The notes under the pieces were generated by a model. It saw nothing but the letters and a program-made list of their open reading frames with translations, searched no databases and was not told where the DNA came from. Below are positions 573-8,939 of a stretch of 17,724 nt of DNA, piece after piece. Both the position numbers and the translations under genes were made by a program. This stretch comes from Clostridia bacterium (GTDB lineage Bacteria > UBA6262 > WVXT01 > JAUXBS01), in assembly GCA_030619245.1 (NCBI GenBank), contig JAUXBS010000007.1, positions 1 through 17,724 of the forward strand. Direction: 5' to 3'. Every line of letters begins with the position of its first letter. Positions within the stretch are counted from its first letter, which is position 1.

Positions 573-4295
<3,723 letters not shown>

Positions 4296-4386: not shown

Positions 4387-5337
4387 ATGTTTGAACTAAG
4401 ATGGAATCCCCTGATTAAATGGTGGGTTATGGTATCTTCATCCAGGCAAACGAGGCCGTTGCTACCCAGTAAAATTTGTCCGTTCTGTCCAGGTTCAGGT
4501 AAAGTCCCGGATAAGTATTCAGTGATGGTATATCAGAATGACTGGCCTATCCTGATGAAGAATCCTACCGGAACAATATCAAAGAATACGAAACTGTATA
4601 AAGCAGCAAAGTCTTACGGCCACTGTGAAGTTATACTCTATTCTTCAGACCATAATATGCAGCTTGGCAAAATGAACAGGTCACAGATCCTTGAAATAAT
4701 TGATTTATGGATTAAAAGATATAAAGCGCTTTCAAAAGAAAAATATATAAAGTATGTATTTATTTTTGAAAATAAGGGTGAGGTTGTAGGAGTTACCATA
4801 AACCATCCTCACGGCCAGATATATGGGTATCCGTTTATACCGAAGAAATTGGAGCTGGAGCTGAAATCATGCCGGCAGTATTACAATAAAAACAGGAAAT
4901 GCCTTCACTGTGATATTTTAAAGGAAGAAAAGGAGGACGGCAGACGGGTTGTTTACAGGAATAAATCTTTTACTGCTTTCGTGCCCTTCTTCGCTGAATA
5001 CCCTTACCAGGTCTTCGTGATGTCAAACCGGCATATACAGTCACTTGCGGATTTCAGTAAAAAGGAAAGAGAAATGCTGGCTGACATGCTCAAGAAACTT
5101 ACCCTGGCATACGACAGGATTTTTAATATGCCGTTCCCGTATATGATGTGCTTCCACCAGCAGCCGGTTGATGGGAAGAAATACGATTACTATCATTTTC
5201 ATATAGAGTTTTATCCGCCTATGAGGAATAAATTAACTCAAAAATTCAACGCCAGTTCCGAAACCGGCGCCTGGGTACACGGCAATCCTTCGTCACCGGA
5301 GGAGAAGGCGGAAGAGATTAGAAAGGCTATAAGATGA
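4387..5337 (+). CDS. galT: Galactose-1-phosphate uridylyltransferase
   Basis: Swaps UMP between UDP-glucose and galactose-1-phosphate, giving UDP-galactose and glucose-1-phosphate in the cytoplasmic Leloir pathway. The active site H140-P-H142-G-Q matches the E. coli HPHGQ, with H142 the predicted uridylylated histidine. C31 and C34 (CPFC), H89 (SDHN) and H140 match the zinc ligands of the E. coli enzyme. The C-terminal half has a second CxxC (C172/C175) and the family's HFHIEFYPP strand (270-278). At 316 residues it is shorter than E. coli GalT (348) but complete at both ends. The ATG follows GAGGG (4378-4382). It begins 91 bases after the beta-galactosidase, and its stop overlaps galE (ATGA). 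Confidence 0.93.
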   Translation: MFELRWNPLIKWWVMVSSSRQTRPLLPSKICPFCPGSGKVPDKYSVMVYQNDWPILMKNPTGTISKNTKLYKAAKSYGHCEVILYSSDHNMQLGKMNRSQILEIIDLWIKRYKALSKEKYIKYVFIFENKGEVVGVTINHPHGQIYGYPFIPKKLELELKSCRQYYNKNRKCLHCDILKEEKEDGRRVVYRNKSFTAFVPFFAEYPYQVFVMSNRHIQSLADFSKKEREMLADMLKKLTLAYDRIFNMPFPYMMCFHQQPVDGKKYDYYHFHIEFYPPMRNKLTQKFNASSETGAWVHGNPSSPEEKAEEIRKAIR

Positions 5338-6320
5338 AAGTTCTGGTTCCGGGAGGAGCAGGATATATAGGAAGTCACACGGTTTTGGAATTAATTGACA
5401 GGGGATATGAAGTAGTAGTCCTTGACAACCTGCAAAAAGGGCACAGGAAGGCCGTTGATTGTGAATTCGTCCAGGCTGATCTGTTAGATAAGGATAAGGT
5501 AAGTGAAATACTGAAAGAACATAAGGTGGAAGCCGTTATACATTTTGCGGCAAACAGCCTGGTGGGCGAATCCATGGAAAGGCCGGACAGTTATTTCAGG
5601 AATAACGATGTTGGAGGACTTAACCTGCTTGATGCCATGAAGGAAAACGGCGTGAAGTATCTTGTGTTTTCATCCACTGCCGCAACGTACGGTGAACCTG
5701 AGAATATACCCATACTTGAAACAGACCCTACTATCCCGACTAATCCTTACGGAGAGACCAAACTGGTGTTTGAGAAGATTATGAAGTGGTATGACAAAGC
5801 TTTTGGGATTAAGCATATGATCCTAAGGTACTTCAATGTGGCAGGAGCTCACTCGTCAGGCAGGATAGGGGAGGACCATGACCCGGAAACGCACCTGATA
5901 CCGCTGGTTTTAAAAACCGCCCTCGGGATAAGAGAGGACATACGTTTGTTCGGGACAGATTATGATACTGAAGACGGGACCTGTATAAGGGATTATATTC
6001 ACGTAACGGACCTGGCTGATGCTCATATACTTGCTCTTGAGAACATGGTTTCTAAAAACAGAAGCAATATATACAATTTGGGTAACGGGAACGGTTTTTC
6101 CGTTAAACAGATAATAGACGCTGCCAGGGAGGTTACGGGCTGCAGTATAAAAACTGTAAATACGGACAGGCGCCCGGGTGATCCTCCTGTATTGATTGCA
6201 AGCTCGGAGAAGATACAAAAGGAACTTGAATGGAGTCCGAAGTTCAATGATATAAATACGATAATAGATTCTGCATGGAAGTGGCACAAGGAAAACCCAA
6301 AGGGTTTCAACGATAAATAG
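5334..6320 (+). CDS. galE: UDP-glucose 4-epimerase
   Basis: Interconverts UDP-galactose and UDP-glucose with tightly bound NAD, regenerating the UDP-glucose used by GalT. It is an extended short-chain dehydrogenase/reductase. The N-terminal GGAGYIGSH dinucleotide-binding loop is followed by VLDNL at the end of strand 2. FSSTAATYG supplies T115 at the position of catalytic Ser124 in E. coli, and Y139-GET-K143 is the YxxxK pair. Later motifs include LRYFNVAGAH, RDYIHVTDLA and the RRPGDPP loop. At 328 residues it has normal length (E. coli 338). The ATG overlaps the galT stop codon (ATGA, 5334-5337), so the two are probably translationally coupled. UDP-sugar epimerases acting on N-acetylated substrates look similar, but the gal context favours GalE. 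Confidence 0.93.
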   Translation: MKVLVPGGAGYIGSHTVLELIDRGYEVVVLDNLQKGHRKAVDCEFVQADLLDKDKVSEILKEHKVEAVIHFAANSLVGESMERPDSYFRNNDVGGLNLLDAMKENGVKYLVFSSTAATYGEPENIPILETDPTIPTNPYGETKLVFEKIMKWYDKAFGIKHMILRYFNVAGAHSSGRIGEDHDPETHLIPLVLKTALGIREDIRLFGTDYDTEDGTCIRDYIHVTDLADAHILALENMVSKNRSNIYNLGNGNGFSVKQIIDAAREVTGCSIKTVNTDRRPGDPPVLIASSEKIQKELEWSPKFNDINTIIDSAWKWHKENPKGFNDK

Positions 6321-6347: not shown

Positions 6348-7748
6348 ATGGAAGAGAATAAACCTAATAGAATTGTTTCAGAAAATAAAGGTTTTTATAT
6401 AGATTCCAAAACAGGACTCTTTAACCAGAAGTATTTAATGGAGTGCTGTATGAAGGAATTATCCAGGGCGAAAAGACATAAATATTCTCTTTCGGTTACC
6501 GTTATAAAGCTTGATTACAGGGCTCAGGTCCTGCGGGACAGCGAGAAAAGACTCAAGAATATAATTGATGAGATTGGCAGGTTTGTAAGGAAGAGTATGC
6601 GTTTTGAGGATATTGCCGGGTATTACGAAGACGATAAAATAGGATTGCTCATGCCTTATTCCACCAGGAAAGAATCCTTTAATATGATGGAAAGGCTGAG
6701 GAAAAAATTCTATCAGCACCCGATGGTCAGGAAGTATAAAGTAAAGCTGACTCTGAGTTTTGGGATGGCATCCTATCCTTATAATGCCAGTACAGTTCAA
6801 CACCTGTTTGAGAAAGCCATGGATTCCCTGGCCCTTGCATCGGAATCCGGAGGCAACCAGGTAAGATCGTCCGTCAAGATAGAGAAGGATGCTTTTAAGC
6901 TGGCTTTCTGCCCTCCGTCTTTCAATAGTTCTTTTTATTCTAACGTTCTTTCCGGAGTAAGGGAGGTTTTAGAAGACGTAGGAAATATAGACCTGAAGAT
7001 TGATGCGCCCGACAAGGAATCTGATTATGAATCACTACGCCAGATACTGGAGAAGTATATCAGAAACAAGGTCGGCGCAATAGCGGTTTGCACAATGGCG
7101 TCGGAGTTGCTAAAAGAAACCGTTCAGAAGGCGTATGAATCAGAAATCCCTGTTTTCTTCTTCAATACACCGAAAAACCTGTTTCATGACAAGGTGGCGT
7201 CGTATATAGGATATAACCAGATGGAAGCGGGAAGGAAAGTTGGGAGATACCTTTCAAGACTCATGAGGAAGAAAGGAAAGTTAGCAATCATAGATGGCCT
7301 TCCGGAGGAAACCTCTATGGAAAGAAGGTGTGGGTTCATGGAAGTGATAAAGGAATGCCCGGAAATAGAAATCGTTGATATAATAAGAGCTGACTGGGAG
7401 AGGGAGAAGGCAAGGAAGGCTGCTGAAAGGATATTTAGATCCCATTCTGATGTTGACTCATTTTTTGCATTGAACGATGAGATGGCTCTCGGTATTACAG
7501 ATACCCTGGAAGAGAAGGACAAACAGGGTAAGGTATTCGTTGTTGGTCTTGACGGCACAACAGCCGCAAAGGATTCTATAAGGGAGGGGAAACTTACCGC
7601 TACACTGGACACACACCCGGTTGAAATGGGCAGGATACTGATGAGGAGTATCCTGAGGTATAAGATAAAAAAAGAGAGGGTGTCAAGGAATATACGTTCT
7701 CCCATTACTATGGTTGATGAGGAGAATCTTGAATTCGCATTTAAATAA
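6348..7748 (+). CDS. Degenerate GGDEF domain fused to an RbsB/MglB-type sugar-binding domain; putative cytoplasmic sugar sensor
   Basis: I do not know a named family with this order. Residues about 19-175 follow the GGDEF fold (DSKTGLFNQKYL start, LSFGMASYP late strand, final helix ending SGGNQV). The signature is EDDKI at 94-98, with both glycines lost, and the first metal-binding Asp is K54 (D56 remains), so diguanylate cyclase activity is unlikely. Residues about 183-466 are a periplasmic-binding-protein type 1 fold of the Peripla_BP_4 kind. Likely ligand contacts align with MglB/RbsB: N273 (FFFN), R327, W350 (ADW), N376 (FALND) and D402 (GLDG). There is no signal peptide, membrane segment or helix-turn-helix, so it should be neither an ABC-importer binding protein nor a standard LacI repressor. 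It sits 27 bases after galE and 21 before galK, suggesting that it senses galactose or a pathway sugar. Its output is unknown. Confidence 0.75.
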   Translation: MEENKPNRIVSENKGFYIDSKTGLFNQKYLMECCMKELSRAKRHKYSLSVTVIKLDYRAQVLRDSEKRLKNIIDEIGRFVRKSMRFEDIAGYYEDDKIGLLMPYSTRKESFNMMERLRKKFYQHPMVRKYKVKLTLSFGMASYPYNASTVQHLFEKAMDSLALASESGGNQVRSSVKIEKDAFKLAFCPPSFNSSFYSNVLSGVREVLEDVGNIDLKIDAPDKESDYESLRQILEKYIRNKVGAIAVCTMASELLKETVQKAYESEIPVFFFNTPKNLFHDKVASYIGYNQMEAGRKVGRYLSRLMRKKGKLAIIDGLPEETSMERRCGFMEVIKECPEIEIVDIIRADWEREKARKAAERIFRSHSDVDSFFALNDEMALGITDTLEEKDKQGKVFVVGLDGTTAAKDSIREGKLTATLDTHPVEMGRILMRSILRYKIKKERVSRNIRSPITMVDEENLEFAFK

Positions 7749-7769: not shown

Positions 7770-8939
7770 ATGGAACAAAGGGTGAAGGAGCTTAACAGGA
7801 AGTACAAAGAAATATTCTCTGACGGGAATAAGGTAAGGAATTTCCAGGCCCCCGGAAGGGTAAACCTTATAGGGGAGCACACCGATTACAACGGCGGCTT
7901 CGTTATGCCTATGGCAATTAACAGAAATGTGCTTTCGGCCGCGGCGCCGAGGGGGGATAACGAGGTTCATATCCATTCGGTGAACTTTGATAAAACCATA
8001 CAGTTTAAGCTGAATAATATAGAGTACAGGAAAGAAGACGGCTGGGGCAATTATATAAAAGGTATGGCGAAAGTTCTGATGGATAAAGGGTACAAAATAT
8101 GCGGTATGAACATATTGTTTGAAGGAGATATTCCCCTGGCAAGCGGACTGTCTTCATCGGCCGCTATAGAAGTACTGAGCGGAAAGACCTTTGCAATGAT
8201 ATCAGGGGTGGAAATACCCGCAGAGGAACTGGCCCTGCTTGCCCAGAAAGCGGAAAACGAGTTCATAGGGGTAAATTGCGGGATAATGGACCAGTATATT
8301 ATCAGTACAGGGAAGAAGAACAATGCATTGTTCCTTGACTGCAGGGACCTTTCTTCCGAACAGGTGCCGTTTATATTTGATGACGTTTACGTTGTCATAG
8401 GCAATACGAAAAAAGAAAGGGGACTGGTTGATTCTGAGTACAATTCGCGCAGGAAAGAATGTGAACACGGCGTAAAGGAGTTTAACAAAATCCTGGGCGG
8501 TGTAAAGGACCTGAGGGATGTTACAAGCCGGCAGTTCGAAGAGAGCAAGGACAAATTGCCGGAAATTACCAGGAAGAGGTGTCAGCATGTAATATATGAG
8601 GACGAGCGTGTGAAAAAGGCGGTTAAATACCTTAAAAGCAAGGACCTCGAGTCTTTTGGGAACCTTATGGTTGAGTCTCATGAATCATTGAGGGATCTAT
8701 ATGAAGTGAGCTGCCGGGAACTGGATATTCTAGTTGAAGAAGCATTGAAGATGGACGGAGTATTCGGCTCCAGGATGACCGGTGCAGGTTTTGGCGGTTG
8801 CAACGTCAGCCTTGTTTTGAAGGACCACGTTGAGAAATTCATAGTACTTATAACGGAAGCATATAAGAAAAAAACATCCAGGAAACCTGAGTTCTATATA
8901 TGTACTCCAGAGGACGGAGCTAAGGAAATAGTTTTATAA
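7770..8939 (+). CDS. galK: Galactokinase (GHMP kinase family)
   Basis: Phosphorylates galactose at C1 with ATP, the entry step of the Leloir pathway. All three GHMP motifs are present. Motif 1 is APGRVNLIGEHTDYNGG (27-43), including the galactokinase signature with E36, H37 and D39. Motif 2 is the phosphate-binding loop PLASGLSSSAA (122-132). Motif 3 is MTGAGFGGC (336-344). D174 in CGIMDQ is the predicted catalytic base, at the same number as in E. coli GalK. Length 389 residues (E. coli 382). The ATG lies 21 bases after the sensor gene, preceded by AAAAGGAA. It is the last gene of the operon. No galM, transporter or regulator with a DNA-binding domain follows. Confidence 0.95.
   Translation: MEQRVKELNRKYKEIFSDGNKVRNFQAPGRVNLIGEHTDYNGGFVMPMAINRNVLSAAAPRGDNEVHIHSVNFDKTIQFKLNNIEYRKEDGWGNYIKGMAKVLMDKGYKICGMNILFEGDIPLASGLSSSAAIEVLSGKTFAMISGVEIPAEELALLAQKAENEFIGVNCGIMDQYIISTGKKNNALFLDCRDLSSEQVPFIFDDVYVVIGNTKKERGLVDSEYNSRRKECEHGVKEFNKILGGVKDLRDVTSRQFEESKDKLPEITRKRCQHVIYEDERVKKAVKYLKSKDLESFGNLMVESHESLRDLYEVSCRELDILVEEALKMDGVFGSRMTGAGFGGCNVSLVLKDHVEKFIVLITEAYKKKTSRKPEFYICTPEDGAKEIVL

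What the first reader, a model, noticed from the sequence alone, without database searches (positions are those of the whole stretch)
6348..7748. Gal-operon protein joining a dead GGDEF fold to a cytoplasmic sugar-binding domain
Seen: the N-terminal part follows the GGDEF fold but carries EDDKI in place of GGDEF and K54 at the first metal aspartate. The C-terminal part is an RbsB/MglB-type fold with pocket-like residues N273, R327, W350, N376 and D402. No export signal, membrane segment or DNA-binding domain is visible. Known: Peripla_BP_4 domains normally serve ABC importers or sit behind a LacI helix-turn-helix; degenerate GGDEF domains can act as GTP/c-di-GMP receptors or dimerisation modules. 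Inference: a one-protein cytoplasmic switch that reads galactose (or a pathway sugar) and signals through its pseudo-GGDEF domain, controlling the operon, possibly its leader, in a way not described for gal regulation.
Basis: partly seen in the sequence, partly recalled or inferred. Interest (0 to 1): 0.72.

Follow-up and report, generated by a model that had tools for sequence, protein, structure and literature searches.

The report
Dead sugar-sensing cyclase in galactose operon
A gene inside a bacterial galactose operon encodes a catalytically dead relative of a little-studied family of cytoplasmic proteins that join a sugar-binding domain to the enzyme domain that makes the messenger c-di-GMP, so it may read both a sugar and the messenger, but a sister species has the same genes without it.

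Summary
Window 6348-7748 encodes 466 aa: a GGDEF-fold domain (residues 17-171) with a ruined active site (K54, EDDKI), then a Peripla_BP_4 sugar-binding domain (186-438), with no membrane segment, export signal or DNA-binding domain. It lies between galE and galK. It is not a one-off: a search returned 65 proteins with both domains, and 68 of 73 aligned rows covering the motif carry intact GG(D/E)E. By sequence these are cytosolic diguanylate cyclases with a C-terminal sugar sensor; I found no study of one. The window protein is a dead paralogue. It keeps 0 of 11 conserved active-site residues (1 of 11 leniently) but 4 of 4 c-di-GMP I-site residues; its sister in the tree, P0003, shows the same pattern. 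Its genome has four other members, eight PilZ and three HD_5 (HD-GYP-type) matches and no EAL match. The gal-regulator reading is weak: the congener's gal cluster lacks the gene, and no ortholog was found there. Most likely it is a sugar-responsive c-di-GMP receptor, or a pairing partner of active paralogues, acting like E. coli CdgI. Ligand, partner and output are inferred. The structure jobs failed, so the fold rests on sequence profiles.

The parts
6348..7748 (+). gene for the 466-aa GGDEF-Peripla_BP_4 protein (P0001)
6396..6860 (+). GGDEF-fold domain, residues 17-171, active site lost
   Evidence: Pfam PF00990 E 9e-14; aligned with solved diguanylate cyclases; same span found by genome search
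6507..6509 (+). K54 in place of the first metal-binding Asp (PleD D327, number recalled)
   Evidence: 67 of 68 motif-intact rows have D
6627..6641 (+).
6474..6476 (+). R43, secondary I-site Arg (WspR R198 by counting; role recalled), kept
   Evidence: 68 of 68 motif-intact rows; WspR alignment
6600..6611 (+). RFED (R85, D88): RxxD c-di-GMP I-site motif, kept
   Evidence: 68 of 68 motif-intact rows carry RxxD; the intact paralogue L144 aligns here with WspR RSSD, named as the I-site in PMC7288161
6693..6695 (+). R116, I-site Arg (PleD R390, recalled), kept
   Evidence: 67 of 68 motif-intact rows
6903..7661 (+). Peripla_BP_4 sugar-binding domain, residues 186-438; pocket candidates S194, F196, Y197, N273, R326, W350, N376, D402
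   Evidence: Pfam E 2.6e-47; nearest solved chain by sequence 2ioy E 6.9e-31
585..4295 (+). lacZ-type beta-galactosidase (GH2) with a LamG insertion
4387..5337 (+). galT
   Evidence: TIGR00209 above cut-off
5334..6320 (+). galE
   Evidence: TIGR01179 above cut-off
7770..8939 (+). galK
   Evidence: NF003705 and TIGR00131 above cut-off

Best explanation
The gene is a lineage-specific, catalytically dead paralogue of a family of cytosolic diguanylate cyclases whose C-terminal Peripla_BP_4 domain senses an intracellular sugar. Made together with the galactose enzymes (inferred from strand and spacing), it most likely binds a sugar or sugar derivative with its C-terminal domain and c-di-GMP at its retained I-site. 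It would act through protein contact, by pairing with the GGDEF domains of active paralogues or with another target, and so tie galactose use to the cell's c-di-GMP pool. Shown: domains, dead active site, kept I-site residues, family, genome context, presence of PilZ and HD_5 domains in the genome. Inferred: both ligands, the partner and the output.
For: Both domains in 65 of 96 listed hits (only the 8000 candidates sharing most words were scored). 68 of 73 rows covering the motif have GG(D/E)E, and those 68 all have RxxD. P0001 keeps 0 of 11 active-site residues (P 1.4e-4 against random loss) but 4 of 4 I-site residues (P 0.056). P0003, 45% identical and its sister in the tree (100/99), keeps 0 of 11 and 4 of 4 (P 0.0081 and 0.0083). 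The genome has 8 PilZ, 3 HD_5 and 0 EAL matches, and two paralogues with intact motifs. Sugar genes adjoin 4 of 10 members in the genus: gal, a ROK kinase in both species, and GH2-NagB. Precedent: E. [quoted passage not shown]
Against: I-site retention is only suggestive: P0001 alone gives P 0.056, P0003 is a sister and not independent, and the residue sets were chosen after seeing the alignment. A separate dead clade (468 aa) in the same genus has lost the I-site (2, 2 and 1 of 4), so dead members need not bind c-di-GMP. Long branches (0.91 and 1.1) fit relaxed selection. The gene is absent from the congener. Six of 10 members in the genus and at least four of 7 outside it have no recognised sugar gene beside them, and no background rate was computed. 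No binding data and no structure.
Confidence: 0.45

Rival explanations
1. It is a lineage-specific leftover or repurposed scaffold: the GGDEF fold is only a dimerisation body or is drifting, and neither c-di-GMP nor GTP is read; at most the sugar domain still works.
For: Long branch; 28 of 56 conserved GGDEF columns lost; a second dead clade lost the I-site too; the gene is missing in the congener; the congener also holds a short C-terminal remnant of another member.
Against: Intact reading frame, tight operon spacing (27 and 21 nt), strong sugar-domain score, and the same keep/lose pattern in P0003 at 45% identity.
Confidence: 0.27
2. A galactose-responsive regulator of the gal operon itself, working without a DNA-binding domain, for example through a partner.
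For: Position between galE and galK in the window; sugar-binding domain of the RbsB/MglB kind; N273, W350, N376 and D402 match the MglB residues at the aligned places.
Against: The congener's gal cluster runs without it; the family is mostly cyclases by motif; no DNA-binding domain; no leader RNA family; N273, W350 and D402 are invariant across the aligned family, so they do not point to galactose; overall similarity is higher to ribose and allose binders than to MglB.
Confidence: 0.13
3. A GTP-sensing pseudo-GGDEF domain that reports the GTP level, as in C. crescentus CC3396.
For: A precedent exists (PMC7288161 passage); D56 and D96 remain.
Against: The positions aligned with PleD N335, D344, K442 and R446 (numbers recalled; D344 as guanine binder in a PMC7288161 passage) are all changed.
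Confidence: 0.07
4. Still an active diguanylate cyclase with a variant motif.
For: A variant AGDEF cyclase exists (PMC3974145, title and start of abstract in the listing); D96 is an allowed residue.
Against: The metal Asp, both glycines, the Glu after D96 and the positions aligned with guanine and phosphate contacts are lost together.
Confidence: 0.02

Closest known systems
E. coli CdgI (degenerate GGDEF protein with intact I-site)
   Same: Dead A-site, intact I-site, shares its sensor domain with active cyclases (PMC5635695 passages)
   Different: [quoted passage not shown] here the shared sensor is a cytosolic C-terminal sugar-binding domain and the gene lies among catabolic genes; c-di-GMP binding is untested here
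P. aeruginosa PelD (degenerate GGDEF receptor)
   Same: A GGDEF domain that binds c-di-GMP to regulate a process (PMC7288161 passages)
   Different: PelD is a membrane protein that controls Pel polysaccharide; no Peripla_BP_4 domain (recalled)
P. aeruginosa RmcA (PBP-clan sensor in a c-di-GMP protein)
   Same: PBP-clan ligand domain joined to c-di-GMP domains (PMC8846402, passages and section 10)
   Different: RmcA uses SBP_bac_3 for L-arginine; the review describes PBP-clan domains as periplasmic with signalling through a TM linker. Here Peripla_BP_4 is at the C-terminus and no membrane segment is predicted
RbsB / MglB / LacI-type sugar-binding domains
   Same: Homologous domain and pocket positions
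   Different: No export signal, no ABC genes in the window, no helix-turn-helix; joined behind a GGDEF domain

Membership tests
Active diguanylate cyclase | GG(D/E)EF motif | tested here: not met
   EDDKI at residues 94-98
Active diguanylate cyclase | Metal- and GTP-binding residues | tested here: not met
   0 of 11 conserved positions kept, 1 of 11 if D96 is allowed
Degenerate-GGDEF c-di-GMP receptor (CdgI/PelD-like) | GGDEF fold | tested here: met
   By sequence only: Pfam E 9e-14, match to solved cyclases over residues 14-171; no model could be made
Degenerate-GGDEF c-di-GMP receptor (CdgI/PelD-like) | RxxD I-site and its partner arginines | tested here: met
   R43, R85, D88, R116 kept, 4 of 4
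Degenerate-GGDEF c-di-GMP receptor (CdgI/PelD-like) | Binds c-di-GMP | not testable with these tools
   Needs a binding assay
GGDEF-Peripla_BP_4 family found here | GGDEF followed by Peripla_BP_4, no membrane segment in the window protein | tested here: met
GGDEF-Peripla_BP_4 family found here | N-terminal extension, GAF in some members | tested here: not met
   Window protein has only 16 residues before the GGDEF match; of 8 relatives scanned 2 have GAF above the curated cut-off and 2 more weakly
Periplasmic sugar-binding protein of an ABC importer | Export signal and transporter genes | tested here: not met
   GGDEF region precedes the sugar domain; maximum hydropathy 0.92; no ABC gene recognised among the window's ORFs of 100 aa or more
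Sugar-binding Peripla_BP_4 domain | Sugar pocket residues | tested here: inconclusive
   N273, W350, N376 and D402 align with MglB residues and R326 with the RbsB Arg, but N273, W350 and D402 are invariant in the family; ligand unknown
LacI/GalR regulator | N-terminal helix-turn-helix | tested here: not met
   No HTH family in the Pfam scan
Conserved gal-operon component | Present in related gal operons | tested here: not met
   The one other gal cluster found in the order, in congener G001, lacks it; galK was not found in the four further genomes of the order

The most novel reading that the evidence does not exclude
A dual-input pseudo-cyclase: one cytosolic protein that binds both an intracellular sugar (C-terminal Peripla_BP_4) and c-di-GMP (I-site of a dead GGDEF). 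It would be derived from a whole family of soluble sugar-sensing diguanylate cyclases that feed carbohydrate status straight into c-di-GMP without a membrane sensor or PTS, and be recruited into a galactose operon to gate its active paralogues by heteromer formation.
Probability: 0.3. Interest if true: 0.78.

Novelty: new variant of a known kind. Interest (0 to 1): 0.5.

Why it matters
[quoted passage not shown] A soluble family with the sugar domain behind an intact GGDEF domain would be a direct, membrane-free route from sugar to c-di-GMP. The window member is a natural test of what remains when such a cyclase dies but keeps its product-binding site. In its recovered genome (76% complete) the only GGDEF matches that show a GG(D/E)E motif are members of this family, so the link to sugar can be tested in a small network.

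Tried and rejected
I did not try again, and no structure search was run. In their place: sequence matches to solved structures.

The first genome-contig scan with P0001 alone found no relative. The scan with alignment A1 gave 5 full-length named loci (L006-L010); the other 75 of the 80 kept matched only the GGDEF part or little beyond it.

Single-domain hits fill most rows. I counted as family members only hits covering about residues 17-462, plus pieces of the same kind cut by contig ends in G000 and G001.

A leader RNA switch was considered and not found. Horizontal arrival by base composition was considered: GC 0.421 and GC3 0.469 lie within the range of the other gal genes, so there is no signal. 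Plasmid carriage: 11 records match, the five listed over 63-70% of the query, none over 80%. RpoC comparison for taxonomy was uninformative (47-63% in eight genomes); among the 120 RpoB hits listed, the nearest with a taxon name are Elusimicrobiota at about 55-60%.

A phylum search around the Omnitrophota locus reached the same 7 genomes and added nothing (2 of 7). Eight paper searches aimed at this domain combination or at sugar and c-di-GMP, and one at degenerate GGDEF receptors (20 of 36 listed). None listed a paper that by title or abstract start deals with a GGDEF-Peripla_BP_4 protein; the review PMC8846402 only names the Periplas_BP domain among unvalidated sensory domains. The library lacks most subscription papers and all preprints.

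Full report
What is there. Window 6348-7748 (+) encodes a 466-residue protein. Pfam places a GGDEF domain at residues 17-171 (E 9e-14) and Peripla_BP_4 at 186-438 (E 2.6e-47), both over the curated cut-offs, and lists no helix-turn-helix. The first half aligns over residues 14-171 with the solved cyclase construct 6d9m (E 3.1e-15) and more weakly with other solved cyclases; the second aligns with ribose- and allose-type binding proteins (2ioy, E 6.9e-31). The highest 19-residue hydropathy mean is 0.92, so the protein is predicted to be soluble and cytosolic. The neighbours are lacZ, galT, galE and galK, with 27 nt before and 21 nt after the gene.

It belongs to a family. A database search listed 96 proteins, 65 of them (P0002-P0066) with both domains (only the 8000 candidates sharing most words were scored; P0002 is 99% identical to the query with no source given, and may be its own record). 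Many are about 620 residues long with an N-terminal extension. Of 8 relatives scanned, 2 have a GAF domain there above the curated cut-off and 2 more weakly. I aligned 76 rows: P0001, P0003-P0066 and 11 translated loci, some of which probably repeat database rows. Three rows are fragments without the motif. Of the 73 that cover it, 68 carry GG(D/E)E and five are degenerate (sorted by eye, then counted); all 68 also carry RxxD. By sequence the 68 are cytosolic diguanylate cyclases with a C-terminal sugar-binding domain. Ten of the 76 rows have a hydropathy window over 1.6 (highest 1.85), so membrane contact of some relatives is not excluded.

How the window protein is dead. Fifty-six GGDEF columns are at least 90% conserved in the 68 rows; P0001 keeps 28 and P0003 18 (gaps counted as lost). 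Of 11 active-site columns both keep 0 (leniently 1, because D96 is an allowed letter). Of 4 I-site columns (R43, R85, D88, R116) both keep 4. Against random loss the chance is 1.4e-4 (active site) and 0.056 (I-site) for P0001, and 0.0081 and 0.0083 for P0003. I chose the two sets after seeing the alignment, and the two proteins are sisters (100/99), so this is suggestive and not proof. A second dead type of 468 residues (L145, L138, with L139) forms a separate clade (100/100) and has lost the I-site (2, 2 and 1 of 4). In a tree of 35 of the 76 rows this clade falls with P0053 and the Omnitrophota group (92/96) and away from P0001/P0003, whose own place is unsure (50/4, and the program warns of P0003's long branch). 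So loss of the N-terminal extension together with death of the active site probably happened twice.

The genome. The window's genome G000 (1.5 Mb, 76% complete) has five family members. Of its seven GGDEF matches these are five; the other two carry GGDDF. In two of the five the GG(D/E)E motif is present, in two it is dead, and in one the contig begins after the motif. There are 8 PilZ matches, 3 HD_5 matches (HD-GYP type; the catalytic motif was not checked) and no EAL match. The congener G001 (98% complete) has 8, 2 and 0, plus one PAS-like cyclase outside the family with GGEEF. So a c-di-GMP circuit is plausible in this genus. Among 120 RpoB hits listed, the nearest with a taxon name are Elusimicrobiota at about 55-60% identity, so the lineage is near that phylum but not placed.

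Link to sugar genes. In the genus, 4 of 10 members with readable neighbours lie beside sugar catabolism genes on the same strand: the gal genes (window); a ROK-family kinase in both species (C223 in G000, Pfam; C30 in G001, read by eye against the former, and itself only an N-terminal piece of a member at a contig end), which looks like one ortholog pair; and a GH2 exo-glucosaminidase-like enzyme plus NagB (C49 in G001, Pfam). The other six lie beside genes that I read by eye as dnaK, cell-wall, lipoprotein-signal-peptidase or unrelated genes, or at contig ends. The congener's C35 fragment, a 76-codon open frame, was left out of the ten. Of 7 loci outside the genus one (L009) lies 304 nt behind a GH141-like gene with a GH31 gene before it, two Omnitrophota loci lie behind a zinc dehydrogenase, and the other four show no sugar gene that I recognised (most genes there were read by eye). 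No background rate was computed. Full-length members are rare in broad samples: 2 of 98 relatives, 3 of 144, 1 of 100, 2 of 7; in the last three samples the centre genome was chosen because it has one.

Against a gal regulator. In G001 the orthologous genes read galT-galE-galK-(DUF4380-like, just under the cut-off)-lacZ with about 60 nt between galE and galK and no such gene between them, and the family hits elsewhere in G001 fall in other subfamilies. GalK was not found in the four other genomes of the order, so this is one comparison. No regulatory RNA family scored (one lncRNA match at E 0.5, far below its gathering score), and promoter-like sites are near expectation. The gene was gained or lost since the two species parted and is not a fixed part of the gal pathway.

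The pocket. N273, W350, N376 and D402 match E. coli MglB at the aligned positions, and R326 matches the RbsB arginine; RbsB has D and F where P0001 has N273 and W350. N273, W350 and D402 are invariant across the aligned family, and scores to ribose and allose binders exceed those to MglB, so the ligand cannot be named.

Literature. A review (PMC8846402; [quoted passage not shown] So the co-occurrence is in print, but I found no study of a cytosolic case. PMC5635695 (passages) gives the nearest functional precedent, CdgI: dead A-site, intact I-site, c-di-GMP bound, contacts with other GGDEF domains. PMC7288161 (passages) names PelD and the WspR RxxD site. In the passages of PMC12268683 that I saw, Peripla_BP_4 is given for LsrB and LuxP and GGDEF for other receptors. 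Searches are listed in Tried and rejected.

Judgement. The best reading is a dead, lineage-specific paralogue of a cytosolic sugar-sensing cyclase family that may serve as a sugar- and c-di-GMP-responsive partner. The largest gap is the absence of a structure model and of any binding data.

Noticed in passing
window 585-4295: The LacZ-type beta-galactosidase carries a Laminin_G_3 (LamG) domain at residues 616-761, between the TIM barrel and LacZ domain 4, and a hydrophobic N-terminus (by eye), so it may be exported.
   Followed up: no
L141:3087-3296 (-), congener G001 contig 35: A C-terminal remnant of a GGDEF-Peripla_BP_4 family member lies in a 76-codon open frame with stops before it.
   Followed up: partly
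L227, congener G001 contig 144: Gal gene order differs between congeners: galT-galE-galK-(DUF4380-like)-lacZ against lacZ-galT-galE-[P0001]-galK in the window.
   Followed up: yes
L137:1976-5458, congener G001 contig 49: An intact-motif family member is followed 33 nt downstream by a GH2 exo-glucosaminidase-like gene and nagB, which suggests glucosamine sensing.
   Followed up: partly
L144 and L211: A ROK-family kinase gene lies directly upstream of a family member in both species of the genus; in G001 the member is cut by the contig end.
   Followed up: partly
L010 and L146: In two Omnitrophota-class genomes the family member follows a zinc-type dehydrogenase gene and lies near a CstA gene (Pfam for L010; L146 by eye).
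   Followed up: partly
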